Origin: Elioraea sp. Yellowstone
Lineage (GTDB): Bacteria > Pseudomonadota > Alphaproteobacteria > Acetobacterales > Acetobacteraceae
Assembly: GCF_006704265.1 (NCBI RefSeq)
Contig: NZ_VIKA01000013.1
Span: forward strand, 1-42,926
Length of the DNA: 42,926 nucleotides
Reading direction: 5' to 3'
Part shown: one piece after another, positions 15,326 through 37,978 of the stretch
How the letters are laid out: each line of letters starts with the position of its first letter
How positions within the stretch are numbered: position 1 is the stretch's first letter
Notes under the pieces: model-generated
Seen by the model: only the letters and a program-made list of their open reading frames with translations
The model's database searches: none
What the model was told of the DNA's origin: nothing
Position numbers and translations under genes: made by a program

Positions 15326-15435
15326 GGTCTCTCCTTCGTCGGCGTGATGGTCGGGCCGGCCGAGGCGCGGGTCAACGGGTGGACGGCCGAGCCCGGCTGG
15401 GGCAGGGTCGCGCCGCCACGCATGAGGGGAGAGCG

Positions 15436-16659: not shown

Positions 16660-16671
16660 GGGAGGATCGCG

Positions 16672-21867: not shown

Positions 21868-22696
<829 letters not shown>

Positions 22697-22700
<4 letters not shown>

Positions 22701-23452: not shown

Positions 23453-24213
23453 GCGCGCGCGCCCCGGCCTGGCAGCGCTACGGCGACATCCTCGCCCTGC
23501 TCGCCGCGCTGGTGCTGCTGTGGTGGGGGCTCGCGCGGCTCGCCGGGCCGGAGGCGCTGACCGGGCCGGCCGAGACGCTCGCGCGCGCGGGCGAGCTGCT
23601 CGACAGCCGCCGCTTCCACGGCCACATCGCCGAGAGCCTGACCGCGCTCGGCTACGCCCTGCTGCTCGCCGCGCTCGGGGGCCTGGGCCTCGGCACCTGG
23701 CTCGGCGTGCGCAGGCTCGCGGGCCAGGTGGCCGAGCCGATCCTGGTCGCGCTCTACGCGCTGCCGAAGATCACGCTCTATCCGGTGATCCTGCTGATCT
23801 TCGGCCTCGGCCTGCCGGCCAAGGTGGCGTTCGGCGCGATCCACGGCATCATCCCGGTGACGATCTTCACGCTGAACGCGGTGCGCACCATCCGGCCCGT
23901 GTACCTGAAGGTCGCGCGCACGCTCCGGCTGACCCCCTGGCAGGCGTTCCGCACGGTCTGGCTGCCGGCGGCCCTGCCCGAGATCGTCTCCGGCCAGCGC
24001 GTCGGCTTCGCGCTGACGCTGCTCGGCGTGCTGATCGGCGAGATGTTCGCCTCGCAGCGCGGGGTCGGCTTCGTCATCATCAACGCGATCGGGCTGAACG
24101 ACGTGCCGACCATCATGGCGGCCGCGTTCCTGCTCGCGGCCTTCGCCGCCACCGTCAGCGCCATCCTGCTGAAGATCGACCGCGCCCTGCACCGCCGCAC
24201 CCTGCGCGCCTGA
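23449..24213 (+). CDS. ABC transporter permease, SsuC/TauC type (second)
   Basis: A 254-residue permease related to the preceding gene. ALPKITLYPVILLIFGLGLPAKV and KVARTLRLTPWQAFRTVWLPAALPEI are the conserved pre-loop and EAA-like coupling segments. It overlaps the first permease by 4 bases and ends the importer unit. The 62-base gap to the next binding protein contains a ribosome-binding site (GGGAGAGG) but no evident terminator, so read-through into the large catabolic unit is possible. Confidence 0.9.
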   Translation: MSARAPAWQRYGDILALLAALVLLWWGLARLAGPEALTGPAETLARAGELLDSRRFHGHIAESLTALGYALLLAALGGLGLGTWLGVRRLAGQVAEPILVALYALPKITLYPVILLIFGLGLPAKVAFGAIHGIIPVTIFTLNAVRTIRPVYLKVARTLRLTPWQAFRTVWLPAALPEIVSGQRVGFALTLLGVLIGEMFASQRGVGFVIINAIGLNDVPTIMAAAFLLAAFAATVSAILLKIDRALHRRTLRA

Positions 24214-24275: not shown

Positions 24276-25487
24276 ATGACCACGACATCCTCCGGCATCC
24301 GCCGCCGCGGCCTGCTCGCCGCCACCGCCGCTCTGCCGCTCGCCGCCCCGCATGTCCGCGCGCAGCCGGCGGCCGTGAAGATCGGCATCCTCCAGCCGGT
24401 CACCGGCGCGCTCGCCCAGGACGGCGAGCACGGCCGGCTCGGCGCCGAGATCGCGATCGACCACGTCAACAGGGCCGGCGGCATCAGGTCGCTCGGCGGA
24501 GCGCGGCTCGAGATGGTGTTCGGCGATGCGCGCTCGAACCCCGAGGGCGGCGTGGCCGAGGTCGAGCGCATGCAGGCCGAGGGGGTGGTGGCGATCGTCG
24601 GCGGCTTCGCCTCGCCGATCTGCCTCGCCGCCAGCCAGGCCGCGGCGCGCTACGACCTCCCCTACATCGTCGATGTCGGCGTCTCCGACCAGATCGTGCA
24701 GCGCGGGCTCAGGAACACCTTCCGCTTCGGCCCGGGCTTCGGCACGGTCACCAGGGCCGCGCTCGACAACCTGGTCGCGATCAACGACGCCGCCGGCAAG
24801 CCGGCGAAGACGGTGGTGATCGTGCACGAGGACGGGCTGTTCGGCTCCGGCATGGCGCGGCTCCTGAACGCCCAGCTGCCCGAGCGCGGCTTCCAGGTGC
24901 TCGAGACGATCGCCCATCCCACGCCCTCGCGCGACATGTCGAACGTGGCGCTGCGCATCCGCGCCCTCGGCCCCGACCTGCTGATCCCCTCGTCCTACTA
25001 CGGCGAGTTCGTGCTGCTCGCGCGCACCATGCAGCAGCAGCGCATCCGCCCGAAGGCGGGCATCTACGCGGTGCTGAACGGTGCCGCCTCGAACTTCCGC
25101 TTCGTGCGCGAGTTCCCGGAGGCGGCCAACCACATCATGGACTGCAACCACTGGGCCGATCCGCGCAAGCCGCTGACCGCCGAGGTGCGCAAGGCGGCCG
25201 AGGCGACGGGGCGGTTCTGGCTCTACAACATCCCGCTCAACTACTCCTGCGTGCGGCTGCTCGCGGATGCGATCGAACGCGCCGGCGCGGCCGACCGGGG
25301 CCGGATCATCGAGGCGCTCGCCGCCTCGACCTTCGACGGCCACATCATGCCCTACGGCCCGACGCGGTTCGAGAACGGCCAGAACACCGGTGCGGCGCCG
25401 GTGAACACCCAGGTGCAGAACGGCGACATCAAGGTGATCTTCCCGCGCGCATTCGCCGACGCCCAGCCGGTCTTCCCGGCGGCGTGA
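24276..25487 (+). CDS. Periplasmic ligand-binding protein, Liv type (second importer), Tat-like leader
   Basis: A 403-residue type I periplasmic binding protein. Three consecutive arginines (residues 9-11, IRRRGLLAA) precede a hydrophobic leader with probable cleavage after HVRAQ (residue 30). The mature part begins VKIGILQPVTGALAQDGEHGRLGAEIA, typical of amide/urea/branched-chain-amino-acid binders. VAIVGGFASPICLAASQAA and HEDGLFGSG are later family segments. It is the first gene of a unit running to 36870. The catabolic genes downstream imply that its ligand is the starting compound of that pathway, which is not yet identifiable. Confidence 0.88.
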   Translation: MTTTSSGIRRRGLLAATAALPLAAPHVRAQPAAVKIGILQPVTGALAQDGEHGRLGAEIAIDHVNRAGGIRSLGGARLEMVFGDARSNPEGGVAEVERMQAEGVVAIVGGFASPICLAASQAAARYDLPYIVDVGVSDQIVQRGLRNTFRFGPGFGTVTRAALDNLVAINDAAGKPAKTVVIVHEDGLFGSGMARLLNAQLPERGFQVLETIAHPTPSRDMSNVALRIRALGPDLLIPSSYYGEFVLLARTMQQQRIRPKAGIYAVLNGAASNFRFVREFPEAANHIMDCNHWADPRKPLTAEVRKAAEATGRFWLYNIPLNYSCVRLLADAIERAGAADRGRIIEALAASTFDGHIMPYGPTRFENGQNTGAAPVNTQVQNGDIKVIFPRAFADAQPVFPAA

Positions 25488-25560
25488 CCGGCCGATCCGG
25501 GCGGCGCCCGCGCCGCGCCGCCCCCTCCCGCCACCGCCCCCGCCACCGCCGCGGCGCGTG

Positions 25561-26433
25561 ATGTACTCGCCCGAGATCCTGCTCACCGCCGTCCTGAACG
25601 GGCTGATGACCGGCGCGGTCTACGCGCTGATCGCGGTCGGGCTGACGCTCGTCTACGGCGTGCTGCACATCATCAACTTCGCCCACGGCGCGACGCTGAC
25701 GGCGGCGATGTTCGCGGTCTACGTGCTGCACGCCGCCTTCGGGCTCGATCCCTATCTCGCGATGGCCGTCACCGTGCCCGGCTTCTTCGCCCTCGGCTAC
25801 GCGGTGCAGCGCCTAGTGATCGGCCCGGCCAGCCACGGCGACGACGGCAACATCCTGCTCGTGACGCTCGGCCTTGCGATCATCATCGAGAACGCGCTGC
25901 TCGTGGTCTTCCGTTCCGACACGCGCTCGATCGACGTGCCCTACGGCTTCGCGGTGATCGAGGTCGGGCCGCTGTTCCTGTCGCTGCCGCGCGTGATCGC
26001 GGTCTTCGTCGTGCTGCTGGTGGCACTGCTGCTGTGGCTGTTCCTCGCGCGCAGCACCACCGGCCAGGCGATCCGGGCGGTGGCGAAGGAGAAGATGGGG
26101 GCGGCGCTGGTCGGCATCGACGTGGGCCACATCTATGCCGTCACCTTCGGCCTCGGTGCCGCCTGCCTCGCGGTCGCGGCCTCGCTGCTGATGCCGACCT
26201 TCCTGGTCAATCCGCGCATCGGCAACGCCTTCGTGCTCGTCGCCTTCACCATCGTCGTGCTCGGCGGCATGGGCTCGATCCCGGGCGCGCTGTTGGGCGG
26301 GCTCTTCATCGGCGTGGTGGAGAGCCTCTCCGGCCTGTTCATGGGCGAGAGCCTGGGCCAGATCGGCATCTTCCTGATCTTCATCCTGGTGCTGCTGTTC
26401 CGCCCGACCGGGCTGTTCGGGGCGAAGGCATGA
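25561..26433 (+). CDS. livH: ABC transporter permease, LivH type (second importer)
   Basis: A 290-residue inner-membrane permease. The ATG at 25561 is preceded in frame by GTG at 25558, and no clear Shine-Dalgarno separates the choices. The N-terminal LNGLMTGAVYALIAVGLTLVYGVLHIINFAHG is a textbook LivH segment, and VLGGMGSIPGALLGGLFIGVVE and LFRPTGLFGAKA close the protein. The 73-base GC-rich gap from the binding-protein gene has runs of CCGCCACC but no convincing terminator. It overlaps livM by 4 bases. Confidence 0.92.
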   Translation: MYSPEILLTAVLNGLMTGAVYALIAVGLTLVYGVLHIINFAHGATLTAAMFAVYVLHAAFGLDPYLAMAVTVPGFFALGYAVQRLVIGPASHGDDGNILLVTLGLAIIIENALLVVFRSDTRSIDVPYGFAVIEVGPLFLSLPRVIAVFVVLLVALLLWLFLARSTTGQAIRAVAKEKMGAALVGIDVGHIYAVTFGLGAACLAVAASLLMPTFLVNPRIGNAFVLVAFTIVVLGGMGSIPGALLGGLFIGVVESLSGLFMGESLGQIGIFLIFILVLLFRPTGLFGAKA

Positions 26434-27401
26434 GCGCGCTCCGCCCCTATCGCGCGATCCTGCTCGCGCTCGCCCTGCTCGCGCTGCTGCCGGTGCTGTT
26501 CACCACGGGCACGGTGCGGAACTTCCTGATCTTCACCCTGATCGTCGCGCTCGCGGCGCAAGGCTGGAACCTGCTCGGCGGCTATGGCGGCCAGTTCAGC
26601 TTCGGCCATGCGAGCTTCTTCGGCACCGGCGCCTACGCGATCGCGATCCTGCAGGCACGCGCGGGGCTGAACCCCTGGCTCGCGCTGCCCGTCGCGGTCG
26701 CGCTCGGCGCCCTGGCGGGCGCGGTGATCGGCACGCTCGCCTTCCGCGCGCGGCTGCGCGGCTCCTACTTCGCGCTCGTCACGCTCGCCTTCGCCGAGGT
26801 GCTGCGCATCGTCGCCAACGTGCTGCCGATCACCGGCGGCGCCGCCGGCACGCTGATCCGCCTGAACGTCGATCCGCTGAACTTCCAGTTCGCCGACCGG
26901 GCGCATTTCTACTGGGTCACGCTGGTCTTCCTCGGCGCGGCGATGGTGCTGGTGCGCGCGCTCGAGCGCGGCCGCTTCGGCGCGCGGCTCGTCGCGGTGC
27001 GCGAGAACGAGGATGCGGCGCGCGCGCTCGGCGTCGATGTGCTGCGGGTGAAGATCGTCGCGATCACGCTCTCGGCCGCGATCACGGCCGTCGCCGGCTG
27101 CCTCTACGCGCAGAACTTCCTCTATCTCGACGCCGCCATCGCCTACGGCCCCTGGATCTCGGTCGAGGCGCTGCTCGCGCCCATCATCGGCGGCCTGGGC
27201 ACGGTGTTCGGTCCGCTGATCGGCGCGCTCGTGCTGCACGGGCTGGGCGAGCTCACCAAGGTCTGGATCGGCGCGCTCACCGGCGGCAGCGTGCCGGGGA
27301 TCGATCTCGTGCTGTTCGGCATCCTGCTGATCGCCACCGTGGGCTTCGCGCCGCGCGGCATCCTCGGCCTGGTTGCGCGGTTGAGGATGCTCCCGGCATG
27401 A
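26430..27401 (+). CDS. livM: ABC transporter permease, LivM type (second importer)
   Basis: A 323-residue permease partner of LivH. GWNLLGGYGGQFSFGHASFFGTGAYA near residue 50 is characteristic of LivM, as are RGSYFALVTLAFAEVLRIV, AVRENEDAARALGVDVLRVK and the C-terminal GFAPRGILGL. Both ends overlap neighbours by 4 bases (ATGA), tying it to LivH and LivG. It is distinct in sequence from the LivM at 5568-6482, so the two importers are paralogous systems rather than a recent duplication. Confidence 0.92.
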   Translation: MSALRPYRAILLALALLALLPVLFTTGTVRNFLIFTLIVALAAQGWNLLGGYGGQFSFGHASFFGTGAYAIAILQARAGLNPWLALPVAVALGALAGAVIGTLAFRARLRGSYFALVTLAFAEVLRIVANVLPITGGAAGTLIRLNVDPLNFQFADRAHFYWVTLVFLGAAMVLVRALERGRFGARLVAVRENEDAARALGVDVLRVKIVAITLSAAITAVAGCLYAQNFLYLDAAIAYGPWISVEALLAPIIGGLGTVFGPLIGALVLHGLGELTKVWIGALTGGSVPGIDLVLFGILLIATVGFAPRGILGLVARLRMLPA

Positions 27402-28142
27402 GCGCGCTCCTCGCGGTCGAGGGCGTCACGATGCGCTTCGGCGGGCTGACCGCGGTGGATGGCGTCACCCTGGCGGTGGCCGAGGGAACGATCACCGGGC
27501 TGATCGGGCCGAACGGCGCGGGCAAGACCACGCTGTTCGCGGTGATCTCGGGCTTCCTCGCGCCGACCGCCGGGCGCGTGCGCTACCGGGGCGAGGACAT
27601 CACGGCGATGCCCGTGCATCGGCGCGCGGAGCGGGGCATCGCCCGCACCTTCCAGATCGTGCAGCCCTTCGCCGGGCTCTCCGTGCGCGAGAACATCGCG
27701 GTCGGCGCCTATCTGCGCCATCCGGGGCGCGAGGCCGCCCTCGCCGCCGCCGATGCGGTGGCGGAACGCGTGGGGCTGGCGAGGCTCCGCGACCTGCCGG
27801 CCGGCGCGCTCACGGTCGCCGGGCGCAAGCGGCTCGAACTCGCCCGCGCCCTCGCGACCGCGCCCACGCTGCTGCTGCTCGACGAGGTGCTCGCCGGGCT
27901 CAACCCCTCCGAGATCCGCGACATGATCCCGGTGATCCGGCGCATCCGCGACGACGGCGTCACGATCCTGATCGTCGAGCACGTGATGCAGGCGGTGATG
28001 AATCTCTGCGACCGCGTGCACGTGCTGGCACAGGGGCGCCTGATCGCCGAGGACACGCCCGCCGAGATCGCGCGCGACCCGAAGGTGGTGGAGGCCTATC
28101 TCGGCCATGGCGCGGCCGAGCGCATGCGGCGCGCGCAGGGCC

Positions 28143-28150
<8 letters not shown>
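27398..28150 (+). CDS. livG: ABC transporter ATPase, LivG type (second importer)
   Basis: A 250-residue ATPase with Walker A GPNGAGKT at residues 37-44, RTFQIVQPFAGLSVRENI around 83-100, and Walker B LLLLDEVLAGLNP around 158-170. The usual LSGGQ signature is replaced by LTVAG before RKRLELARAL (about residues 138-151). I recall similar LTLAG-type variants in some LivG proteins, so activity is still likely. The gene overlaps livM by 4 bases and the following livF by 8 bases. Confidence 0.9.
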
Positions 28151-28856
<706 letters not shown>

Positions 28857-28862
28857 ACGACG

Positions 28863-30248
28863 ATGGACGTGATCCGCGCCAGCCAGCTCACGGTGGACGA
28901 CGCCTGGCTCGTCGCATGGTCGCGCTTCGCCGCCGGGCTCCGCGTCGAGGACATCCCCGCGGAGGTGGTCGCGCGCGCGCGCCTCGTGCTGCTCGACACG
29001 CTGGGCGCGATCGCCGCCGGCGCGCAGGAGCCGGAGATGGTCGCGCTGACCGCGCGCATGGCGGCGCTGCACGGCACGGGCGGCATCGCCACGGCGGTGA
29101 TCGGCGGCCGCACCCGCCTGCCGCTGCCGGTCGCCGCGTTCCTGAACGGCACCGCCGGTACGATGCTCGAGCTCGACGAGGGCAACCAGTACTGCCGCGG
29201 CCATCCGGCGATCCATGTCGTGCCGGCCGCACTCGCTGAAGCCGACCGGGGCGGCGCCTCGGGGGCGGCGCTGATCCGCGCGCTCGTGCTCGGCTACGAG
29301 ATCGCCGCGCGCATCGGCATCGCCTCGCGGCTGCGCGTCACCATGCACCCGCACGGCACCTGGGGCACGGTCGGCGCGGCGGTCGCGGCCGCGTCGCTTG
29401 CGGGCGCGGACGCCGCGACCATGCGCGAGACGATCAACGTCGCCTCCACGCTCGGCCTCGCGACCAGCCGGCGCACCATGCTCCAGGGCGGGACGGTGCG
29501 GAACGCCTATGCCGGGGTGTCGAGCCAGCTCGGGCTCACGGCGGTGGAGCTGGTCGGCGCGGGCTTCGTCGGCGAACCCGACGGGGTCGCGACCGTCTTC
29601 GGCACCGTCGCGGCCGACGACTTCCGCCCCGAGGAGATGACGCGCGAGCTGGGATCGCGCTGGGAGATCGCGCGCAACTACTTCAAGCGCCACGCCGCCT
29701 GCCGCTACACCCACGGCGCGCTCGATGCGCTGGGCGCGATCCTGGCCGAGACCGGCCCCGTCGCGCCCGACGAGGTCGCCGCCCTGGAGGTGGACACCTA
29801 TGTCTGGGCGGCGCAGCTCGACGATCCCGCCCCGCGCAACATGCTGGCCGCGAAGTTCTCGCTCCCCTTCGCGCTCGCGACCATGATCGTCAGCGGCGAG
29901 ACGGGCGTGGCGTCGTTCCGCGACCCGGCGCGCCAGGACGCGGCGACACGGGCGCTCGCGGCGCGCGTCACGGTGCGCGAGGACCCGGCCTTCACCGCCG
30001 CCCTGCCCGCGCTGCGGCCGGCGCGCGTCACGCTCGCGCTCCGCGACGGCCGGCGCGTGCAGCGCACGGTGACGACCAATCGCGGCGACGCCGAGGCGCC
30101 CTATCCGCCGGAGGAGATCCTCGCCAAGTTCGACACCCTCGCCGCGCCGGTCTGGGGCGCGCAGCGCACGGCGGCGATCCGAGCGGCGGTCGAGACCATC
30201 GACACGGCCGGGGATGTGCGCGCGCTCACCGCCCTGCTGGCAGGATGA
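28863..30248 (+). CDS. MmgE/PrpD family protein
   Basis: A 461-residue member of the MmgE/PrpD family, which includes 2-methylcitrate dehydratase, cis-aconitate decarboxylase and iminodisuccinate epimerase. The family-typical motifs are visible: RGHPAIHVVPAALAEAD near residue 120, HPHGTWGTVGAAVAAA starting at H162, and FKRHAACRYTHGALDA with K275, H277, C280 and H284. Length is normal. It begins 6 bases after livF and overlaps the next gene by 4 bases. No citrate synthase or acyl-CoA ligase accompanies it, so a standard methylcitrate cycle is unlikely. A dehydration, isomerisation or decarboxylation of a substituted di- or tricarboxylate is the likeliest chemistry. Confidence 0.88.
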   Translation: MDVIRASQLTVDDAWLVAWSRFAAGLRVEDIPAEVVARARLVLLDTLGAIAAGAQEPEMVALTARMAALHGTGGIATAVIGGRTRLPLPVAAFLNGTAGTMLELDEGNQYCRGHPAIHVVPAALAEADRGGASGAALIRALVLGYEIAARIGIASRLRVTMHPHGTWGTVGAAVAAASLAGADAATMRETINVASTLGLATSRRTMLQGGTVRNAYAGVSSQLGLTAVELVGAGFVGEPDGVATVFGTVAADDFRPEEMTRELGSRWEIARNYFKRHAACRYTHGALDALGAILAETGPVAPDEVAALEVDTYVWAAQLDDPAPRNMLAAKFSLPFALATMIVSGETGVASFRDPARQDAATRALAARVTVREDPAFTAALPALRPARVTLALRDGRRVQRTVTTNRGDAEAPYPPEEILAKFDTLAAPVWGAQRTAAIRAAVETIDTAGDVRALTALLAG

Positions 30249-31108
30249 GCATGGACCTGAGGCAGCGACTCGCCGAACCGCGCATCGTGCTCGCCCCCGG
30301 CGTGTGCGACGCGCTGACCGCCGCGATCGCCGCCGCGGCGGGGTTCGAGGCGCTCTACGTCTCGGGGGCGGCGATCGCCTACACGCGGCTCGGCCGGCCC
30401 GATCTCGGCCTCGTCGCGATGACCGAGGTCGCCGATCACGTCGCGCGCATCGCCGACCGCGTGGACGTTCCGCTGATCGTCGATGCCGACACCGGCTACG
30501 GCAACGCGCTGAACGTGCAACGCACGGTGCGGGCCCTCGAGCGCGCCGGCGCGGCGATGATCCAGCTCGAGGACCAGACGTTCCCGAAGCGCTGCGGCCA
30601 TCTCGACGGCAAGGCCGTGATCCCGGCGGCCGAGATGGTCGGCAAGATCCGCGCCGCGGCGGATGCGCGGCAGAACGCCGCCACGCTGATCCTCGCGCGC
30701 ACCGATGCCGCGGCGATCGAGGGTCTCGACGCCGCGCTCGACCGCGCGCGCGCCTATGCCGAGGCCGGGGCCGATGCGCTGTTCGTCGAGGCGCCGCGCA
30801 CGCGCGCGGATCTCGCCCGCGTCACGGCCGCGCTCGGCACGCTGCGTCCCCTGCTCGCCAACATGGTCGAGGGCGGCAAGACGCCGGTGCTGTCCGCGCC
30901 GGAGCTGGAGGCGATCGGCTTCCGCATCGTCATCTTCCCGGGTGGCATCGTGCGTGCGCTCGCCCGCACCGCGCGCGAGTTCTACGCGTCGCTCGCCGCG
31001 ACGGGCACCACCGAACCGTTCCGCGACCGCATGCTCGACCTCGCCGGACTGAACGACCTGATCGGCACGCCCGCGATGCTGGCGCTCGGGAAGAGGTACG
31101 ATGCATGA
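30245..31108 (+). CDS. Isocitrate lyase/PEP mutase family C-C lyase
   Basis: A 287-residue TIM-barrel protein of the ICL/PEPM family. The catalytic-loop motif KRCGH is at residues 115-119, with the cysteine (C117) required by lyases such as 2-methylisocitrate lyase, isocitrate lyase and 2,3-dimethylmalate lyase; phosphonate mutases and oxaloacetate decarboxylases usually lack it. The metal-binding DADTGYG lies at 80-86 and QLED around 107-110. Both ends overlap their neighbours by 4 bases. It would split a 2-hydroxy-dicarboxylate-like acid to pyruvate, glyoxylate or similar plus a second acid. It therefore probably follows the MmgE/PrpD step. Confidence 0.88.
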   Translation: MSMDLRQRLAEPRIVLAPGVCDALTAAIAAAAGFEALYVSGAAIAYTRLGRPDLGLVAMTEVADHVARIADRVDVPLIVDADTGYGNALNVQRTVRALERAGAAMIQLEDQTFPKRCGHLDGKAVIPAAEMVGKIRAAADARQNAATLILARTDAAAIEGLDAALDRARAYAEAGADALFVEAPRTRADLARVTAALGTLRPLLANMVEGGKTPVLSAPELEAIGFRIVIFPGGIVRALARTAREFYASLAATGTTEPFRDRMLDLAGLNDLIGTPAMLALGKRYDA

Positions 31109-32841
31109 GCCTTGATCCCGTCACGCTCGCGGTGCTGAAGGGCAGGCTCGAGCAGATCGCCGACGAGATGGACGCGACGCTGGCGCGCTCGGCCTTCAAC
31201 CCGATCATCGCCGAGGCGCGCGACCTCAGCCACGGCCTCTACCACGCCGAGACCGGCGAGACGCTGGTGCAGGGCCATGCCGGCCTGCCGATCTTCGTCG
31301 GCGCGACCGCCTTCGCCGTGCGCGCGGTGATCGCCGCGGCGGCGCAGGAGGGCGGGGCGCGGCCCGGCGAGACCTGGATCTTCAACGACCCCTATGACGG
31401 GGGGACCCATCTGAACGACTTCCGCCTGGTGCGACCGGTGTTCCGGCAGGGGCGGCTCTTCTGCTGGATCGCCTCGGTCGGGCACTGGCTGGACATCGGC
31501 GGCAACGTGCCGGGCGGCTACAACCCCCGCGCGACGGACGCGCACCAGGAGGGCGTGCGCATCCCGCCCGTGCGGCTGATGCGCGAAGGCATGGTCGATC
31601 CGGCGATCGTCGCGATCCTGCAGGCGAACACGCGCGTGCCGCTCTCCAACTGGGGCGACCTGAACGGACAGATCAACGCGCTCGATCTCGGCGAGCGGCG
31701 GCTTCACGCGCTGCTCGACGAGGCGGGCGAGGAGGTGGTCGCCGAGGCGCTCGCCGCGCTCTCGGCCCGCGCCGAGGCGCTGATGCGGAGCGAGATCGCC
31801 CGCCTGCCCGACGGCACCTACGCGGCGGAGGATTTCCTCGACAACGACGGCATCGCCGATGCGCCGCTGCCGATCCGCCTCGCCATGACGATCGCGGGCG
31901 ATGCCATGACGCTCGACTTCACCGGCTCGGCCCCCGCCTGCGCGGGGCCGCTCAACATCAGCCGCGCGACCACGATCGCCTGCTGCTATGTCGCGCTGAA
32001 GCACCTGTTCCCGGAGGTGCCGGCGAATGGCGGCTGCCTCGCGCCGATCCGTTTCGTCGTGCCGGAGGGATCGCTGCTGGCGGCGAACGCACCGAAGCCG
32101 GTGGCGGGCTACACCGAGACGATCCTGCGCGTGATCGACACGGTGTTCCGCGCCTTCGCCCAGGCCGCGCCCGCCCGCGCCACCGCCGGGCCCTTCGCCA
32201 CCATCAACGCGCTCTCGATCAGCGGCTGGCGCGAGGCGGCGACGCGCTGGGTGATGTTCTGCTTCTTCGGCGGCGGCCTGGGTGGCAACCCGGAGTCCGA
32301 CGGGCTGAACCACGGCAACAACCCCATCAGCACCGCGACCATCCCGCCGCTGGAGATCCTGGAGGCCGCATACCCTGTCCGGTTCACGCAATGGGCGCTG
32401 CGGCCGGACAGCGGGGGGCCGGGCCTGCATCGCGGCGGCCTGGGCGCGATCTACGAGATCGCGGTCGATGATCCGCGCGGCGCGGAGGCGTTCCTGCTCG
32501 GCGAGCGCGGGCGCTTCCCGCCCTTCGGCGTGAACGGCGGCGGCAACGCGGCACCCAACCGGTTCGGCTACGAGACGGAGTCTGGCTGGGAATCGCCGCC
32601 GATGGTCTCGAAAGTCTTCGGCGTGCGCCTCGCACCCGGCGCACGGGTGCGGCTGGAGACGCCGGGCGGCGGCGGCTGGGGCGAGGCGCGCGCGCGCGAT
32701 CCTGCGCGCGTCGCACGCGACGTGCGGCTCGGCTACGTCTCGGTCGAGGCGGCGCGCCGCGACTATGCGGTGGTGGTGAGCGCCGACGGCACCGTCGATG
32801 CCGCCGCGACCGCGGCGCTGCGCGAGGGCGGCGCGGCATGA
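31105..32841 (+). CDS. hyuB: Hydantoinase B/oxoprolinase family subunit
   Basis: A 578-residue HyuB-type subunit. NDPYDGGTHLNDF at residues 94-106 is the characteristic motif, and the N-terminal VTLAVLKGRLEQIADEMDATLARSAFN and late RPDSGGPGLHRGGLG segments are also typical. HyuA/HyuB pairs carry out ATP-dependent amide or lactam hydrolysis (hydantoin, N-methylhydantoin, 5-oxoproline) or ATP-dependent carboxylation (acetone, acetophenone). The gene overlaps both neighbours by 4 bases and precedes hyuA, the reverse of the frequent A-B order. The absence of a third small carboxylase subunit favours amidohydrolase rather than acetone-carboxylase chemistry. Confidence 0.9.
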   Translation: MSLDPVTLAVLKGRLEQIADEMDATLARSAFNPIIAEARDLSHGLYHAETGETLVQGHAGLPIFVGATAFAVRAVIAAAAQEGGARPGETWIFNDPYDGGTHLNDFRLVRPVFRQGRLFCWIASVGHWLDIGGNVPGGYNPRATDAHQEGVRIPPVRLMREGMVDPAIVAILQANTRVPLSNWGDLNGQINALDLGERRLHALLDEAGEEVVAEALAALSARAEALMRSEIARLPDGTYAAEDFLDNDGIADAPLPIRLAMTIAGDAMTLDFTGSAPACAGPLNISRATTIACCYVALKHLFPEVPANGGCLAPIRFVVPEGSLLAANAPKPVAGYTETILRVIDTVFRAFAQAAPARATAGPFATINALSISGWREAATRWVMFCFFGGGLGGNPESDGLNHGNNPISTATIPPLEILEAAYPVRFTQWALRPDSGGPGLHRGGLGAIYEIAVDDPRGAEAFLLGERGRFPPFGVNGGGNAAPNRFGYETESGWESPPMVSKVFGVRLAPGARVRLETPGGGGWGEARARDPARVARDVRLGYVSVEAARRDYAVVVSADGTVDAAATAALREGGAA

Positions 32842-34889
32842 GCGCGATCGTCGGGGTGGATGTCGGCGGCACCTTCACCGACCTCTTCGCGCTCGATCCG
32901 GCGACGGGGACGTTCCGCACCGGCAAGGTGCCGTCGCGGCGCGGCGACGAGGCGGCCGGCTTCCTCGACGGCCTGGACACGGTGGGCGGTGTCGGCGGCC
33001 TCGCCGCGGTGGTGCACGGCACGACGGTCGGCACCAATGCGCTGCTGGAACGGAAAGGTGCCCGCATCGGCCTGATCGCCACGCGCGGCTTCCGCGACGT
33101 GCTGGAGATGCGCCGGCGTGACCGGCCCCACACCTGGGGCCTCTGGGGCGACTTCGTGCCGGTGGTGGACCGCGATCTCAGGGTCGAGGTGGACGAGCGC
33201 ACGCGCGCCGACGGCACGGTCCTGCTGCCGGTCGATCCGGCGCAGGTCGCGGAGGCCGGGCGGGCCCTGCGCGCGCGCGGCGTCGAGGCGATCGCCGTCG
33301 CCTTCATCAACGCCTACGCCAACCCGGCGAACGAACGTGCCGCGATGGCGGCGCTGCGCGCGCTCTGGCCGGAGGGGCATCTCTGCTGCTCCTCCGACAT
33401 CCTGCCGGAGATCCGCGAGTTCGAGCGCACCAGCACGACGGCGCTGAACGCCTATCTCCAGCCGGTGGTCGGCGCCTATCTCGGCCGGCTCGAAGCGGCG
33501 CTGGATCAGCGCCGCTTCCGCGGCGCGTTCCACATCGTGCAGTCGAACGGCGGGGTGATGAGCACGGCGATGGCGCGCCGCCTGCCGGTGCGCACCGCGC
33601 TCTCCGGCCCTGCCGCCGGGGTGATCGCCGCGGCGGCGATCGCGCGCGCGGCAGGCTTCCCCGACGTGATCACCGGCGATCTCGGCGGCACGAGCTTCGA
33701 CGTCTCGCTGATCGCGGACGGCCAGCCTGCCTTCGCCGCGCAGGCGTCGATCGATTTCGGCCTCGTCATCCGCACGCCGATGGTCGAGATCACCACGATC
33801 GGCGCCGGCGGCGGCTCGATCGCGCGCGTCGATGCCGGGGGCCTGCTGCAGGTGGGGCCGGAGAGTGCCGGCTCGGTGCCCGGGCCGGTCTGCTATGGCG
33901 GCGGCAACGACCGGCCGACGCTGACGGATGCCAACCTGGTACTCGGCCGCATCAACGCCGACCGTCCGATCGGCGGCGCGCTCGCGCGGCTCGACGTGGA
34001 CGCGGCGCGGGAGGCGATCGCGCGCCATATCGGCGCCCCGCTCGGGCTCGATGCGCTCGCGGCGGCGGAGGCGATCGTGCGCGTGGCGAACGCCAGGATG
34101 GCGGGCGCGATCCGGCTGCTCTCCATCGAGCGCGGGCACGATCCCGCGCGCTTCGCGCTGATGCCGTTCGGCGGCGGCGGCGCGCTGCACGCGGGGGCGC
34201 TGATGCGCGAGGTCGGGCTGAAGGCGACGCTCGTGCCGCGCTTCCCCGGCGTCACGTCCGCGCTGGGCTGCGTGCTCGCCGATCTGCGCCACGACCAGGT
34301 GCAGACCGTGAACCTGATGCTCGACGGGCTGGATGCGGCGGCGCTGGACGCGCGGCTCGCCGCCGCCGGCGCGGAGGCGCGCGGCGTGATCGAGCGCGCC
34401 GGGCTGCCGATCGAGGGCGTGGAGGTGCGGTTCGAGGCGGACATGCACTATCTCGGGCAGACGCACACCGTCGCGGTGCCCCTGCCGTTCCGGCTCACGA
34501 GCGGGGGGACGGTCGGCGTGCATGCCGAGGCGATCCGCAGCGCCTTCGAGGCGGCCTACAGCGCGGCCTTCTCGCGCCTGCTGCCGGAGATTCCGATCCG
34601 CATCGCCAATCTCCGCACGATCGCGATCGGTCGCCGCCCCCCGCTCGACCTCGCCTCGCTCGCCCCGCCGCCCGGCGCCTCACGCGCGGCGGCCGAACGC
34701 GGCACGCGCCCGGTGTGGTTCGACGGCACGGCGCACGAGACGGCCGTGTGGTCCCGGCTTGACCTGCCGGTCGCCGCCGAGATCCTGGGTCCCGCCATCC
34801 TCGAACAGCCGGATGCGACGATCGTCGTCGATCCGGGCCTGATGGCGCGGGTCGACCGGCTCGGCAACCTGGTGATCACGCGCGCATGA
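32838..34889 (+). CDS. hyuA: Hydantoinase A/oxoprolinase family subunit
   Basis: A 683-residue HyuA-type subunit with an ASKHA nucleotide-binding fold. VGVDVGGTFTD at residues 5-15 is the phosphate-1 loop, HGTTVGTNALLERKG follows around 57-71, and GDLGGTSFDVSLI at 280-292 is the second glycine-rich loop; FGGGGALHAG lies near 443-452. It should bind ATP and phosphorylate the amide or ketone substrate presented with HyuB. The gene overlaps HyuB and the isochorismatase-like gene by 4 bases each. Length and domain order are normal. Confidence 0.9.
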   Translation: MSAIVGVDVGGTFTDLFALDPATGTFRTGKVPSRRGDEAAGFLDGLDTVGGVGGLAAVVHGTTVGTNALLERKGARIGLIATRGFRDVLEMRRRDRPHTWGLWGDFVPVVDRDLRVEVDERTRADGTVLLPVDPAQVAEAGRALRARGVEAIAVAFINAYANPANERAAMAALRALWPEGHLCCSSDILPEIREFERTSTTALNAYLQPVVGAYLGRLEAALDQRRFRGAFHIVQSNGGVMSTAMARRLPVRTALSGPAAGVIAAAAIARAAGFPDVITGDLGGTSFDVSLIADGQPAFAAQASIDFGLVIRTPMVEITTIGAGGGSIARVDAGGLLQVGPESAGSVPGPVCYGGGNDRPTLTDANLVLGRINADRPIGGALARLDVDAAREAIARHIGAPLGLDALAAAEAIVRVANARMAGAIRLLSIERGHDPARFALMPFGGGGALHAGALMREVGLKATLVPRFPGVTSALGCVLADLRHDQVQTVNLMLDGLDAAALDARLAAAGAEARGVIERAGLPIEGVEVRFEADMHYLGQTHTVAVPLPFRLTSGGTVGVHAEAIRSAFEAAYSAAFSRLLPEIPIRIANLRTIAIGRRPPLDLASLAPPPGASRAAAERGTRPVWFDGTAHETAVWSRLDLPVAAEILGPAILEQPDATIVVDPGLMARVDRLGNLVITRA

Positions 34890-35482
34890 CCGACCCCACG
34901 ACCACGGCGCTCCTGCTCTGCGACCTGCAGAACGACTTCCTCCACCCCAAGGGCGCCTATGCGCGCGGCGGCCAGACCGCACCCGAGATCGCCGCATTGC
35001 CGGCGCGGCTCGCGCCGCTCGCCGCGCGGCTGCGCGCGCGCGGCGGCTGGGTGGTGGCGACGCTGTTCACGCTGGTGCCGGGCAGGGGGGGCGAGCCGTT
35101 CATCTCGCCGCACCTGAAGGCGCTGCGGCCCTTCCTGCGCGCGGGCGACTTCGCGCCCGGCTCCTGGGGCCAGGCGCTGGTCGACGAGCTCGCGCCGGCG
35201 GACCTGACGGTGGAGAAGGTCGCCTACAGCGCCTTCTACATGAGCCGGCTCGAATGGGTGCTGCGCAAGGCCGGGATCGAACGGCTGCTGGTGGCCGGGA
35301 TCGTGACGAACGGCGGCGTGGCCTCGACCGTGCGCGACGCGGCAGTGCGCGACATCCCCTGCACGGTGCTGGCGGATGGCTGTGCGGCCTTCGATGCGCG
35401 CACGCACGAGGTCGCGCTCGAGGCGCTGCGGCCGGTCGCGCGCCTCGCGACCGTCGCCGAGACGCTGGACGCGCTCGGATGA
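34886..35482 (+). CDS. Isochorismatase-fold hydrolase lacking the catalytic cysteine
   Basis: A 198-residue protein of the isochorismatase-like/cysteine hydrolase superfamily. The triad in N-carbamoylsarcosine amidohydrolase and nicotinamidases is Asp-Lys-Cys. Here Asp is D13 (LCDLQNDF) and Lys is K111 (VEKVAYSAF), but the cysteine position in the TNxCV motif is glycine (TNGGV, G144). True isochorismatases also lack this cysteine, so a non-nucleophilic hydrolysis or a binding role is possible. In N-methylhydantoin degradation an enzyme of this fold acts right after HyuAB, which makes the position suggestive. It overlaps hyuA and the flavoprotein gene by 4 bases. Confidence 0.87.
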   Translation: MTDPTTTALLLCDLQNDFLHPKGAYARGGQTAPEIAALPARLAPLAARLRARGGWVVATLFTLVPGRGGEPFISPHLKALRPFLRAGDFAPGSWGQALVDELAPADLTVEKVAYSAFYMSRLEWVLRKAGIERLLVAGIVTNGGVASTVRDAAVRDIPCTVLADGCAAFDARTHEVALEALRPVARLATVAETLDALG

Positions 35483-36870
35483 CGGAGCCGACCGTCGCGC
35501 CCGCGGAAGGCATCGCGTTCGGCGCCGAGGCCGAGGTGGTGATCGTCGGCGGCGGCGCGGCGGGGATGGTGGCGGCGCTGGCCGCGGCGGAAGCGGGCGC
35601 GGAGCCGGTGGTGGTGGAGCGCGACGCGGTGCCGCGCGGCTCCACCGCGCTCTCGGCGGGGCTGATCCCGGCCGCGGGCACGCGCTGGCAGCGCGCGGCG
35701 GGGATCGCGGACGACGCGGCGCGGTTCGCGGCCGACATCCAGCGCAAGGCGAAGGGGGAGGCGGACGAGGCGGTGCTCGCGGCCGTCACGCGGACGATCG
35801 CGGGCACGCTCGAGTGGCTCGCGGATTCGCACGGGCTCGCCTTCTCGGTGGTGACGGATTTCCTCTACCCGGGGCATTCGGCGCATCGGATGCACGGGCT
35901 CGCGAGCCGGTCGGGGGCGGAGCTGATCGACCGGCTGCGGAGCGCGGTGGAGCGGGCGGGCATCGCGGTCGCGACCGAGGCGGCGGCGCGCACGCTGTTC
36001 GTCGCTGGCGACGGCACGGTGCGCGGGATCGGCATCGCGCGGCCGGACGGCAGCGGGGAGCGGATCGGCTGTCGCGCCCTGGTGCTGGCCTGCAACGGCT
36101 ATGGCGGCAACCGCGCGCTGGTGCGCCGGCACATCCCGGAGCTCGCCGAGGCGGTGTGGTTCGGCCATGACGGCAACCGCGGCGAGGCGGTGCTGTGGGG
36201 CGAGGCGCTGGGGGCCGAGCTTCGCCACCTCTCCGGGCATCAGGGCCACGGCTCGGTCGCGCATCCGCACGGCATCCTGATCACCTGGGCGGTGATCATG
36301 CAGGGCGGCGTGCAGGTGAATGCGCTGGGCGAACGGTTCAGCGACGAGACGGAAGGATATTCCGAGCAGGCGGCGCGCGTGCTGGCGCAGCCCGGCGGCA
36401 TCGCCTGGGACGTGTTCGACGCACGGATCGCCGCGATCGCGCGGCAGTTCGAGGATTTCCGCGCCGCCGAGGCGGCCGGGGCGGTGCTGCGGGCAGACAG
36501 CCTGGAGGCCTTGGCCGCGGCGATGAAGGTGCCGCCATCCGCGCTCGCGGCTTCGCTCGCGGAGCGTGGCGCGCCGGACCGGTTCGGGCGCGACTGGACG
36601 GGGGTGGCGCCGCTCGCGCCGCCCTATTGCGCGGTGCGCGTCACGGGCGCGCTGTTCCACACGCAGGGTGGGTTGGCGATCCGCGACGATGCGCGGGTGC
36701 GGCGCGCCGCGGGCGGGGTGTTCCCGAACCTGTTCGCCGCCGGCGGCGCGGCGGCCGGGCTCTCGGGCTCGCGCGCCGCGGGATATCTCTCCGGCAACGG
36801 CCTGCTGACGGCGGTCGCGCTCGGCGCGATCGCGGGCAGCGAGTCGGCGCGTCTCAGCCGGGCGTCGTGA
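35479..36870 (+). CDS. Fumarate reductase/succinate dehydrogenase-like FAD flavoprotein
   Basis: A 463-residue soluble FAD_binding_2 flavoprotein. The FAD Rossmann motif VVIVGGGAAGMVAA has GGGAAG at residues 24-29 and the ADP-ribose Glu at E47. GSTALSAG follows, and the late FAAGGAAAGLSGSRAAGYLSGNGL binds the flavin. R286 in GERFSDE aligns with the acid/base arginine of fumarate reductases, and a TQGGL motif precedes the C-terminus. Relatives include tricarballylate dehydrogenase, 3-ketosteroid dehydrogenases and fumarate reductase, so it probably oxidises or reduces a C-C bond next to a carboxylate or ketone. It is the last gene of the unit and overlaps the convergent pqqE end by 17 bases. 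Confidence 0.88.
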   Translation: MTEPTVAPAEGIAFGAEAEVVIVGGGAAGMVAALAAAEAGAEPVVVERDAVPRGSTALSAGLIPAAGTRWQRAAGIADDAARFAADIQRKAKGEADEAVLAAVTRTIAGTLEWLADSHGLAFSVVTDFLYPGHSAHRMHGLASRSGAELIDRLRSAVERAGIAVATEAAARTLFVAGDGTVRGIGIARPDGSGERIGCRALVLACNGYGGNRALVRRHIPELAEAVWFGHDGNRGEAVLWGEALGAELRHLSGHQGHGSVAHPHGILITWAVIMQGGVQVNALGERFSDETEGYSEQAARVLAQPGGIAWDVFDARIAAIARQFEDFRAAEAAGAVLRADSLEALAAAMKVPPSALAASLAERGAPDRFGRDWTGVAPLAPPYCAVRVTGALFHTQGGLAIRDDARVRRAAGGVFPNLFAAGGAAAGLSGSRAAGYLSGNGLLTAVALGAIAGSESARLSRAS

Positions 36871-37978
36871 CCCGGGGTCCAGGGGCCTTGCGGCCCCTGG
36901 CGGGGGGTGCGGGGGGCGGAGCCCCTCGCCTGTACTGTGTGTCCGGCTCGCCAGGTCTGGCGTTGGAGACGAGCGCGTGATCCGGCGCGAGCGCGCAGGC
37001 GGGGTCGGTGCGCGCGGCATCGCCCGTCAGCGCAAACGCCTGGCACCGGCACCCGCCGAAGTCGAGCGCACGCCGGTCGCAGCTCCGGCACGGCTCCGGC
37101 ATCCAGTCTTCGCCGCGATAGGCGTTGAAGCCGGGGTTGTCGCGCCAGATCGCGTTGAGGGCGTGCTCGCGCACGTTCCACCATTCGAGCGGCAATGTGT
37201 GCGCGGCGTGACACGGCAGGGCGGTGCCGTCGGGGCCGACGACGATGAAGCGGCGCGCCCAGCCGTCCATGCAGGCCTTGGGGCGACCCGTGAAGTAGTC
37301 GGGCAGCACGAACAGCACCTCCATGCGGCCTTTCAGCCGCGTGCGCGCCGCGGCGGCCTCGGCGCGGGCGCGGTCGATCTGTGCGCGCGTCGGCAGGAGC
37401 GAGTCGCGATTGGCAAGCGCCCAGCCGAGATACTGGGTGTTGGCGAGTTCCAGACGTTCCGCGCCCCACTCCTCGGCCAGCGCGACGATCTCGGGCACGT
37501 GGTCGAGGTTGGCGCGGTGCAGCACGACGTTCAGCGTCAGCGGCAGGCCGAGCTCGCGCACCCAGGCCGCGACCGCGCGCTTGTGCGCGAAGCTGCGCGT
37601 GCCGGCGATCCGGTCGGAGCGTGTCTCGTCGGCGTCCTGGATGGAGAGCTGCACGGCATCGAGCCCGGCGTCGCGCAAGCCGGCGAGGCGGGCGCGCGTC
37701 AGCGGCACGCCGGAGGTGATCAGCGTCTGGTAGAGCTCGAGGCGCCGTCCGTGCGCGACGATCGCGTCCAGGTCGTCGCGCAGCAGCGGCTCGCCGCCGG
37801 TGAGCGTGACCTGCATCACGCCGAGGGCTTCGGCCTCGGAGAGCACGCGGATCCAGTCCGCGGTCGCGAGCGCGTCGTGGCGCTCCGTCCAGTCGAGCGG
37901 GTTGGAACAGTAGCCGCAGCGGAGCGCGCAGCGATAGGTGAGCTCGGCGACGAGCGTGTAGGGGCGCGGCGCGGTCAC
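36854..37978 (-). CDS. pqqE: PQQ biosynthesis radical SAM enzyme PqqE
   Basis: A 374-residue radical SAM/SPASM protein that makes the C-C bond between Glu and Tyr of PqqA, the first step of PQQ synthesis. The radical SAM cluster motif CxxxCxxC is at C17, C21 and C24 (RCALRCGYC). TLTGGEPLL is the SAM-binding GGE motif. The SPASM cysteines lie in LPCHAAHTL, PEPCRSCDRR and GGCRCQAFALTGDAARTDPAC. The start is GTG in a GTGA overlap with pqqD. After the conserved TDPACALAPDHAL the last 35 or so residues are Pro/Arg-rich and encoded by the GC-rich hairpin region, so this tail is probably not conserved. Confidence 0.95.
   Translation of the reverse strand: MTAPRPYTLVAELTYRCALRCGYCSNPLDWTERHDALATADWIRVLSEAEALGVMQVTLTGGEPLLRDDLDAIVAHGRRLELYQTLITSGVPLTRARLAGLRDAGLDAVQLSIQDADETRSDRIAGTRSFAHKRAVAAWVRELGLPLTLNVVLHRANLDHVPEIVALAEEWGAERLELANTQYLGWALANRDSLLPTRAQIDRARAEAAAARTRLKGRMEVLFVLPDYFTGRPKACMDGWARRFIVVGPDGTALPCHAAHTLPLEWWNVREHALNAIWRDNPGFNAYRGEDWMPEPCRSCDRRALDFGGCRCQAFALTGDAARTDPACALAPDHALVSNARPGEPDTQYRRGAPPPAPPARGRKAPGPRVTTPG
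36879..36900. terminator. GC-rich hairpin at the convergent end of the catabolic unit and pqqE
   Basis: CCAGGGGCC at 36879-36887 pairs perfectly with GGCCCCTGG at 36892-36900 around the loop TTGC. A second short stem, GGGGC at 36913-36917 with GCCCC at 36921-36925, follows. It sits 9 bases beyond the flavoprotein stop and could terminate transcription from both directions. There is no T-run. The hairpin lies inside the pqqE reading frame, so it also encodes part of the PqqE tail. Confidence 0.6.

What the first reader, a model, noticed from the sequence alone, without database searches (positions are those of the whole stretch)
24276..36870. Continuous importer-plus-catabolism unit of undescribed purpose
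Twelve genes run in one direction from a Liv-type binding protein to a fumarate-reductase-like flavoprotein. From livH onward nearly every junction is a 4-base stop/start overlap (8 bases at livG/livF, a 6-base gap at livF/MmgE). The enzymes are MmgE/PrpD, a KRCGH-containing ICL/PEPM lyase, HyuB, HyuA, an isochorismatase-fold protein and a C-C oxidoreductase. I know of no named pathway with this exact set. A plausible scheme is uptake of a cyclic amide, lactam or imide, ATP-dependent ring opening by HyuAB, then dehydration/decarboxylation and C-C cleavage to central metabolites. The scheme is inference.
Basis: partly seen in the sequence, partly recalled or inferred. Interest (0 to 1): 0.78.

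Follow-up and report, generated by a model that had tools for sequence, protein, structure and literature searches.

The report
Operon for breaking down cyclic imides
A string of eleven bacterial genes looks like a complete kit for importing a small ring-shaped nitrogen compound, opening the ring and cutting it into ordinary metabolites; the best-fitting food is a fragment of chlorophyll or heme whose breakdown route in bacteria I did not find described.

Summary
A distinct lyase (ICL) clade marks 131 non-redundant loci (a capped sample) in alpha- and betaproteobacteria; 98 carry a ring-opening module. Three kinds of cyclic amidohydrolase fill that role and never co-occur in the stretches held: HyuB-HyuA with an isochorismatase-fold protein (79 loci), PuuE-like (10), allantoinase/hydantoinase-like (9). 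LeuCD-type hydratases lie near in 87 of 98. I had noted that hematinic acid, a chlorophyll/heme monopyrrole, would give pyruvate plus glutarate; some units then proved to hold glutaryl-CoA dehydrogenase and succinate-glutarate CoA-transferase. My reading: a cyclic imide with a propionate arm, most likely hematinic or dihydrohematinic acid, is opened, hydrated and cleaved. Substrate and chemistry are inferred. Against a simple story: that linkage is seen in only 5 of 131 loci plus one; no LeuCD of the unit's clade was found in the window's genome; and the 'cysteine hydrolase' has glycine at the catalytic cysteine in 80 of 80 copies.

The parts
24276..25487 (+). Liv-type periplasmic binding protein (SBP)
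   Evidence: Pfam Peripla_BP_6 E 6.5e-44; orthologs in same position in relatives
25558..26433 (+). livH-type permease, GTG start
   Evidence: NCBIfam UrtB 143 and LivH 122 bits, below cut-offs; junction
26430..27401 (+). livM-type permease
   Evidence: Pfam BPD_transp_2 155 bits
27398..28150 (+). livG-type ATPase
   Evidence: NCBIfam LivG 210 bits, best model, below cut-off 362
28143..28856 (+). livF-type ATPase
   Evidence: NCBIfam LivF 239 bits, best model, below cut-off 441
28863..30248 (+). MmgE/PrpD-family enzyme; hydratase/dehydratase or epimerase (role unsettled)
   Evidence: Pfam N and C domains; nearest solved chain IDS-epimerase E 4.7e-27; in 14 of 131 unit loci at 49% identity or more
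30245..31108 (+). ICL/PEPM-superfamily C-C lyase, methylisocitrate-lyase-like; clade marker of the unit
   Evidence: TIGR02317 297 bits, cut-off 354 not reached; orthologs at about 55-72% identity
31105..32841 (+). HyuB, hydantoinase B/oxoprolinase subunit
   Evidence: Pfam PF02538 564 bits
32838..34889 (+). HyuA, hydantoinase A/oxoprolinase subunit
   Evidence: Pfam; nearest solved chains N-methylhydantoinase 400 bits and 5-oxoprolinase 396 bits
34886..35482 (+). Isochorismatase-fold hydrolase without catalytic Cys (Asp13, Lys111, Gly144 each in 80 of 80)
   Evidence: Pfam PF00857
35479..36870 (+). FAD_binding_2 flavoprotein, flavocytochrome c / TcuA-like, with Tyr294 where flavocytochrome c has an Arg

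Best explanation
A catabolic operon for a five-membered cyclic imide carrying a carboxyethyl (propionate) arm, most likely hematinic acid (3-methyl-4-carboxyethyl-maleimide) and/or its dihydro form from ring D of chlorophyll. Steps, all inferred from family and context: the Liv importer takes it up; HyuAB opens the imide with ATP; the isochorismatase-fold protein helps turn the half-amide into a tricarboxylic acid; the FAD protein (TcuA-like) dehydrogenates the saturated form to a methyl-homoaconitate; a hydratase (LeuCD type in relatives; MmgE or an unlinked LeuCD in this genome) adds water; the ICL-type lyase splits the methyl-homoisocitrate into pyruvate and glutarate; succinate-glutarate CoA-transferase and glutaryl-CoA dehydrogenase, unlinked here and linked in some relatives, finish the job. 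Carbon balance: C8 = C3 + C5. Shown: gene content, order, conservation, exchangeable ring-opening modules. Not shown: any activity, or the substrate. My confidence in the wider class (a cyclic imide or amide made into a substituted malate and cleaved) is about 0.8; in this particular substrate 0.45.
For: Three mutually exclusive ring-opening modules in 98 loci: HyuAB 79, PuuE-like 10, allantoinase/hydantoinase-like 9, no overlap in the stretches held (hypergeometric 2e-9, ignoring relatedness); the PuuE and allantoinase labels each need at least 4 changes on well-supported branches of a quick lyase tree. In L129 and L140 the allantoinase-like gene sits between lyase and FAD protein, where others have HyuB-HyuA-isochorismatase fold. 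PuuE relatives include a cyclic imide hydrolase, HxnM (passages of PMC9304392). Hydratase: the short LeuC of L043 scores 532 bits to the general aconitase/isopropylmalate dehydratase large-subunit family and 470 to the homoaconitate hydratase family, its LeuD 169 bits to LeuD/DmdB, all above cut-off; LeuC or LeuD near in 87 of 98. Lyase best model PrpB. Both also in L094 and L168, SUGCT in L044, GCDH in L074 and L078. The own genome holds GCDH 77% and SUGCT 59% identical. Hematinic acid is a known chlorophyll product of leaves and sediments (passages of PMC7318184 and PMC12860425).
Against: GCDH (60% or more) or SUGCT (52% or more) lies in only 5 of 131 loci (L044, L074, L078, L094, L168), plus L092 which lacks the lyase; about 0.5 expected for each, p about 0.002 and 0.012 under an assumed uniform density; L074 and L078 are one family. 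NCBIfam does not name the L092 dehydrogenase: its best model is a FadE at 235 bits and a glutaryl-CoA dehydrogenase model gives 215, both below cut-off; SUGCT stays below its cut-off of 750. Eleven other stretches around close GCDH or SUGCT genes hold no unit. CaiB-family genes at 35-40% beside other units (L136, L150, L179, L190) were not classified. No LeuCD of the unit's clade was found in the window's genome: C344 is basal and lies beside an untested ORF of LeuB size, C332 is 55%. MmgE occurs with LeuCD in 10 of 14 loci, so it is not simply a replacement. The isochorismatase-fold protein lacks the amidase Cys, and the allantoinase-like loci show no counterpart of it. I recognised no tetrapyrrole gene among the neighbours that I looked at; no search for such genes was made. 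33 of 131 loci show no ring module in the stretch held.
Confidence: 0.45

Rival explanations
1. Same logic, other cyclic imide: a substituted maleimide or succinimide without the propionate arm (for example ethylmethylmaleimide, citraconimide) or the desmethyl analogue. Products would be pyruvate, glyoxylate or 2-oxobutyrate with another acid; glutarate genes would be incidental or belong to some members only.
For: GCDH/SUGCT lie near in only a few loci. Among the solved hits of the lyase are 2,3-dimethylmalate lyase and petal death protein, which cleave several alkylmalates (recalled).
Against: GCDH and SUGCT sit inside the gene string in L092 and L168, and SUGCT in L044; a homoaconitate hydratase family model is among the two best matches of the short LeuC, above its cut-off.
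Confidence: 0.27
2. Hydantoin or ureide pathway: HyuAB or allantoinase-like enzymes open a 5-substituted hydantoin and the amidase releases an amino acid, as in creatinine or ergothioneine breakdown.
For: HyuA is nearest N-methylhydantoinase among solved chains; the allantoinase-like replacement also matches hydantoin-5-propionate amidohydrolase models below cut-off; the Cys amidase of L071 resembles a biuret hydrolase model weakly.
Against: Gives no job to the LeuCD hydratase, the C-C lyase or the glutaryl-CoA enzymes that travel with units; the unit's own isochorismatase-fold protein lacks the Cys expected for carbamoyl hydrolysis.
Confidence: 0.08
3. One reading: HyuAB opens a lactam, followed by dehydration or decarboxylation by MmgE/PrpD and C-C cleavage.
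For: The best NCBIfam models of HyuA and HyuB are caprolactamase subunits, 494 and 302 bits; MmgE relatives include cis-aconitate decarboxylases.
Against: Scores are far below the caprolactamase cut-off of 1000; 117 of 131 loci lack an MmgE at 49% or more, while LeuCD is near in 101 of 131. An aminotransferase expected for an opened lactam was not noticed, but not searched for.
Confidence: 0.12
4. Two or more unrelated functions that happen to be transcribed together: a Liv importer, a HyuAB system and a lyase branch.
For: Importer type varies among relatives; Tistrella splits the lyase part and the HyuAB-isochorismatase-GCDH-SUGCT-LeuCD part over two plasmids.
Against: The combination recurs in many families of alpha- and betaproteobacteria, with exchange of whole modules in place.
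Confidence: 0.05

Closest known systems
2-Methylcitrate cycle, lower part (PrpD/AcnB, PrpB)
   Same: Hydration of an aconitate-like tricarboxylate followed by ICL-superfamily cleavage to pyruvate plus a dicarboxylate (recalled chemistry); MmgE/PrpD and PrpB-like proteins present
   Different: One more carbon is inferred (glutarate, not succinate); fed by cyclic amidohydrolases; lyase below the PrpB cut-off; no citrate synthase noticed in the unit
Nicotinate fermentation branch of Eubacterium barkeri (2,3-dimethylmalate dehydratase DmdAB and dimethylmalate lyase; recalled)
   Same: LeuD/DmdB-type hydratase plus ICL-superfamily lyase on a disubstituted malate
   Different: No HyuAB, Liv importer or such flavoprotein; anaerobic, B12 mutase route (recalled)
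ATP-dependent hydantoinase/oxoprolinase systems (N-methylhydantoinase, 5-oxoprolinase, caprolactamase)
   Same: HyuA and HyuB domain content and closest solved relatives of HyuA
   Different: Well below the caprolactamase cut-offs; coupled to an isochorismatase-fold protein without Cys and to a C-C lyase
Aspergillus nidulans nicotinate pathway cyclic imidase HxnM plus amidase HxnN (PMC9304392, passages)
   Same: Cyclic imide to half-amide to hydroxyacid by a PuuE-related imidase and an amidase, as proposed for the PuuE version of this unit
   Different: Six-membered imide; the passages name no hydratase or C-C lyase at this step

Membership tests
Hydantoinase/oxoprolinase HyuAB | Hydantoinase_A N-terminal and central domains, Hydantoinase_B domain | tested here: met
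   All above Pfam gathering scores
Hydantoinase/oxoprolinase HyuAB | ATP-dependent opening of a cyclic amide | not testable with these tools
   Only indirect: exchange with other cyclic amidohydrolases
Caprolactamase CapAB (NCBIfam equivalog) | Score above curated cut-off 1000 | tested here: not met
   494 and 302 bits
2-Methylisocitrate lyase PrpB (TIGR02317) | Score above cut-off 354 | tested here: not met
   297 bits; another member, of L148, 285
ICL/PEPM superfamily lyase | PEP_mutase family match and catalytic KRCGH motif | tested here: met
   PF13714 161 bits; K115-H119 invariant in 17 rows
Cysteine hydrolases of isochorismatase fold (amidases such as RutB, biuret hydrolase) | Catalytic Asp, Lys and Cys | tested here: not met
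   Asp13 and Lys111 80 of 80, but Gly144 at the Cys position 80 of 80 (aligned to RutB and a Cys hydrolase)
Isochorismatases proper (PhzD, EntB) | Asp-Lys with Gly at the third place (recalled) | tested here: inconclusive
   Asp-Lys-Gly present; PhzD and EntB are distant hits; a passage of PMC12210187 names a conserved Gly156 contacting the substrate and a catalytic Asp but does not say that Gly156 takes the Cys place
Fumarate reductase / flavocytochrome c | Catalytic Arg proton donor (role recalled) | tested here: not met
   Position aligned to an Arg of 1qo8 is Tyr294 in 82 of 82; TIGR01813 213 bits, cut-off 285
Tricarballylate dehydrogenase TcuA | Score above cut-off 369 (NF006130) or 373 (TIGR02485) | tested here: not met
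   150 and 100 bits
Methylcitrate cycle | 2-methylcitrate synthase in the unit | not tested
   None noticed in the annotated relatives; not searched for
Glutaryl-CoA dehydrogenase (in relative L092) | Nearest characterised relatives are glutaryl-CoA dehydrogenases | tested here: met
   620 bits to 1sir; apart from chain 4w9u (600 bits, titled only acyl-CoA dehydrogenase) the best chain of another name has 243; NCBIfam models stay below cut-off
Succinate-glutarate CoA-transferase NF052585 (in relatives L092, L094) | Score above curated cut-off 750 | tested here: not met
   533 and 542 bits, by far the best model (next 295 and 318) but below cut-off

The most novel reading that the evidence does not exclude
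A widespread dedicated bacterial pathway that mineralises hematinic and dihydrohematinic acid, the propionate-bearing monopyrrole left by chlorophyll and heme, through a one-carbon-longer counterpart of the methylcitrate cycle (methyl-homoaconitate, methyl-homoisocitrate, pyruvate + glutarate), with a Cys-less isochorismatase-fold enzyme that may let the substrate's own carboxylate attack the half-amide.
Probability: 0.38. Interest if true: 0.82.

Novelty: new variant of a known kind. Interest (0 to 1): 0.62.

Why it matters
Chlorophyll is made and degraded at about 10^12 kg a year, and hematinic acid is reported from senescent leaves, lake sediments and fossil leaves (passages of PMC7318184 and PMC12860425). 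None of the papers listed by my searches (20 of 862, 4 of 4, none found, 16 of 16; titles and starts of abstracts) was about a bacterial gene set that consumes it; most subscription journals are not held. If the reading is right, the fate of this last nitrogen-bearing pigment fragment becomes testable in relatives such as Azospirillum, Bradyrhizobium, Methylobacterium and Sulfitobacter. Even if the substrate is another imide, this is a recurrent catabolic operon with three interchangeable ring-opening modules, and annotations such as 'cysteine hydrolase' and 'leuC/leuD' hide it.

Tried and rejected
Riboflavin breakdown as a source: passages of PMC12746152 name enzymes that do not match. Searches for hydantoinase with dimethylmalate or maleimide (17 of 17 listed), imidase (15 of 245 listed), petal death protein (1 paper) and the gene-name combination (no paper) gave no description of the unit in what was listed. 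Hydantoin and creatinine routes were set aside because they leave the hydratase and lyase without work. 'MmgE replaces LeuCD' was an early idea and was weakened: 10 of 14 MmgE loci also have LeuCD. A catabolic LeuCD in the window's own genome was sought and not found with confidence. 'The FAD protein is a fumarate-reductase-like ene reductase' was weakened by the Arg to Tyr change. Eleven stretches around close GCDH or SUGCT genes elsewhere (L196-L206) were fetched to see whether they too sit in such units; none does. Structure prediction was not used because the folds were clear from sequence. Not in the counts: L001-L035 (short stretches, mostly of the same places), L081-L084 (lyase 53% or less), L112-L115 and L196-L206 (not lyase stretches), seven near-identical loci (L036, L037, L038, L047, L117, L143, L145), and L092 (no lyase; kept only for the isochorismatase-fold count). 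The sample is capped and partly my choice: one search kept the best 80 of 577 relatives, one search did not list all matches and I fetched stretches for the best, and I took 13 regions out of the plasmid hits. The GCDH/SUGCT densities behind the p values are my rough assumption, not a measured control.
Full report
WHAT IS THERE. The window carries eleven co-directional genes from 24276 to 36870: a Liv-type binding protein, livH, livM, livG, livF, an MmgE/PrpD protein, an ICL/PEPM lyase, HyuB, HyuA, an isochorismatase-fold protein and a FAD protein. From livH on, seven of nine junctions are 4-base overlaps, livG/livF overlap by 8 and livF/MmgE are 6 apart, as stated; SBP and livH are 70 apart. 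An ORF of the other strand (36854-37978) meets the end of the string. The host genome is 3.8 Mb in 358 contigs.

CONSERVATION. The lyase was sought in 385 genomes of the class: 123 have a match at E 1e-60 or better; the listed matches step from E 9e-96 (55% identity) to about 1e-84 (52-54%). Stretches around the better ones, around chosen plasmid hits and around the best 80 of 577 contig matches were fetched, so the sample is capped. Of 139 loci taken into the count, window included, 138 hold the lyase at 54% or more, and 131 remain after removing near-identical ones. The same order of SBP, livH, livM, MmgE, lyase, HyuB, HyuA, isochorismatase fold and FAD protein is seen in Microvirga (L116), a Hyphomicrobiales MAG (L118), Methylobacterium (L119), Salinarimonas (L135), Bradyrhizobium (L189) and Roseomonas haemaphysalidis (L085); livG and livF were not queried in those scripts, but the annotation of L085 shows two ATPases in their place. 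All six also have LeuC and LeuD beside the unit.

RING OPENING IS THE CONSTANT FUNCTION. Of the 131 loci, 79 have HyuAB, 10 have PuuE-like proteins and 9 have an allantoinase/hydantoinase-like protein; none has two of these in the stretch held; 33 have none, some because the contig ends. Under random placement, no overlap between 19 alternatives and 79 HyuAB loci has probability 2e-9; relatedness is ignored in that figure. On a quick tree of the lyase, the PuuE and allantoinase labels each need 8 changes, at least 4 of them forced by well-supported branches. In L129 and L140 the allantoinase-like gene stands between lyase and FAD protein, the place that HyuB-HyuA-isochorismatase fold has in the window. 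Its best model is allantoinase AllB at 235 bits, followed by other cyclic amidohydrolases, all below cut-off; its nearest solved chains are allantoinases. The four PuuE-like proteins scanned match only allantoinase PuuE, at 114 to 141 bits, below cut-off. Passages of PMC9304392 describe HxnM, a relative of PuuE, as a cyclic imide hydrolase followed by an amidase. In 7 of the 10 PuuE loci another isochorismatase-fold protein is near; the five that I aligned have the Cys.

HYDRATION AND CLEAVAGE. LeuC or LeuD proteins are near in 87 of the 98 ring-module loci and 101 of all 131: a short kind, mostly inside the string, or a long kind beside it. The short LeuC of L043 scores 532 bits to the general aconitase/isopropylmalate dehydratase family and 470 to the homoaconitate hydratase family, its LeuD 169 to LeuD/DmdB, all above cut-off. 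The lyase matches methylisocitrate lyase best but stays under its cut-off. By established chemistry of these families (recalled), a hydratase of the aconitase type followed by an ICL-type lyase turns a substituted cis-aconitate into a 2-oxo acid and a dicarboxylate.

THE PREDICTION AND ITS TEST. Before any result on GCDH or SUGCT I noted that hematinic acid would give pyruvate and glutarate. Later, the unit on Tistrella plasmid pTM2 (GntR, HyuB, HyuA, isochorismatase fold, an acyl-CoA dehydrogenase, a CaiB/BaiF protein, LeuC, LeuD) turned out to hold a dehydrogenase that matches glutaryl-CoA dehydrogenase chains at up to 620 bits; apart from 4w9u (600 bits, titled only acyl-CoA dehydrogenase) the best chain of another name has 243. 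NCBIfam does not name it: FadE 235 bits and a glutaryl-CoA dehydrogenase model 215, below their cut-offs. The CaiB/BaiF protein matches succinate-glutarate CoA-transferase at 533 bits (next model 295; cut-off 750 not reached). Burkholderia plantarii has both behind the lyase; L168 has both behind the FAD protein; L044 has the transferase between isochorismatase fold and LeuC; L074 and L078 have the dehydrogenase divergent from LeuC. So 5 of 131 lyase-bearing loci, and L092, hold at least one. With an assumed density of about one gene per 4-5 Mb, 0.54 and 0.47 are expected and 4 and 3 are seen (p 0.002 and 0.012); the density is rough, and L074 and L078 are one family. Outside its own genus, the best match of Tistrella's transferase in 385 genomes is the unit-linked one of L044 (74%), but 11 other stretches around close GCDH or SUGCT genes showed no unit. 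The window's genome has both genes elsewhere (77% and 59%).

PROPOSED PATHWAY (inferred). Hematinic acid or its dihydro form enters; HyuAB opens the imide at the cost of ATP; the isochorismatase-fold protein assists loss of ammonia; the FAD protein dehydrogenates the saturated tricarboxylate; hydratase; lyase; pyruvate + glutarate; glutaryl-CoA; crotonyl-CoA. Eight carbons in, three plus five out. One double bond of ring D of chlorophyll is hydrogenated except in chlorophyll c (passage of PMC7318184), which would explain a dehydrogenase. Hematinic acid is reported from senescent leaves, lake sediments and fossil leaves (passages of PMC7318184 and PMC12860425); a reference title in PMC8669743 says that an E. 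coli heme protein releases it (title only). I recognised no tetrapyrrole gene among the neighbours that I looked at, but made no search for them.

TWO ODD ENZYMES. The isochorismatase-fold protein keeps Asp13 and Lys111 but has Gly144 where RutB and Cys hydrolases have their nucleophile; this is so in 80 of 80 copies, although public records call it a cysteine hydrolase. Asp-Lys-Gly resembles isochorismatases proper (recalled); a passage of PMC12210187 names a catalytic Asp and a conserved Gly156. One way to lose ammonia without a Cys is attack by the neighbouring carboxylate, known for dialkylmaleamic acids (recalled); this is a guess. It stands with HyuAB in 77 of 79 loci; the other two, L126 and L050, are cut by contig ends. 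The FAD protein has Tyr294 in 82 of 82 copies where flavocytochrome c has an Arg (aligned; counted; the catalytic role of that Arg is recalled), so a simple ene reductase is unlikely; it resembles flavocytochrome c (213 bits) and TcuA (150 bits) among others, below cut-offs. It is near in 74 of 98 ring-module loci.

MmgE. Present at 49% or more in 14 of 131 loci, with LeuCD near in 10 and not in the window, L091, L072 and L182; Tistrella (L091) has a LeuCD on another plasmid. Its nearest solved chain is iminodisuccinate epimerase, then cis-aconitate decarboxylases. It may epimerise the dihydro acid or hydrate. In the window's genome the LeuC of contig C344 is basal to the unit's kind and lies next to an ORF of LeuB size, not tested further, and that of C332 is 55% identical, so the hydratase of this host is open.

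VERDICT. The unit is a recurrent catabolic operon of alpha- and betaproteobacteria for a cyclic imide or amide (about 0.8), most likely a propionate-bearing imide from tetrapyrroles (0.45). The papers listed by my searches (lists capped in 31 and 34) hold no description that I could see; most subscription journals are outside the library.

Noticed in passing
window 36854-39925, - strand: Genes that look like PQQ biosynthesis (pqqE, D, C, B; recognised by eye, no profile run) converge on the end of the unit; the first ORF overlaps the FAD gene's end by 17 bases.
   Followed up: no
window 20884-24213, + strand: A second importer (NMT1-type binding protein by Pfam; ATPase and two permeases by eye) ends 62 bases before the Liv binding protein, so it may share the transcript.
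   Followed up: partly
window 361-8180, + strand: Another complete Liv-type importer (1941-6482) with an aldehyde dehydrogenase, a GAF protein and an M24 peptidase/creatinase-like protein.
   Followed up: no
L091 and L092 (Tistrella mobilis pTM1 and pTM2): The pathway seems split over two plasmids; the genus has a second glutaryl-CoA dehydrogenase-like gene, 74% identical, on another contig.
   Followed up: partly
L089 (Variovorax sp. RA8 plasmid), 5939-17286: The lyase and LeuCD stand with a SfnG/RutA-like LLM monooxygenase, SDR, isochorismatase-fold protein, RibBA-type and flavin reductase genes: perhaps another N-heterocycle feeding the same lower pathway.
   Followed up: partly
L087 4056-5024; L148, L091: An old-yellow-enzyme-family gene (NamA 284 bits, below cut-off; annotated as nitronate monooxygenase in L087) sits near some MmgE-type units together with Asp/Glu-racemase-family genes.
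   Followed up: partly
L150 2262-9133: By eye: lyase with an amidase-like ORF before it and isopropylmalate/tartrate dehydrogenase-like, CaiB-family and acyl-CoA-type ORFs behind it; a different downstream route.
   Followed up: no
G000:C332 (L112): A second LeuCD pair beside a CaiB-family gene (37% to SUGCT) in the host genome, purpose unknown.
   Followed up: no
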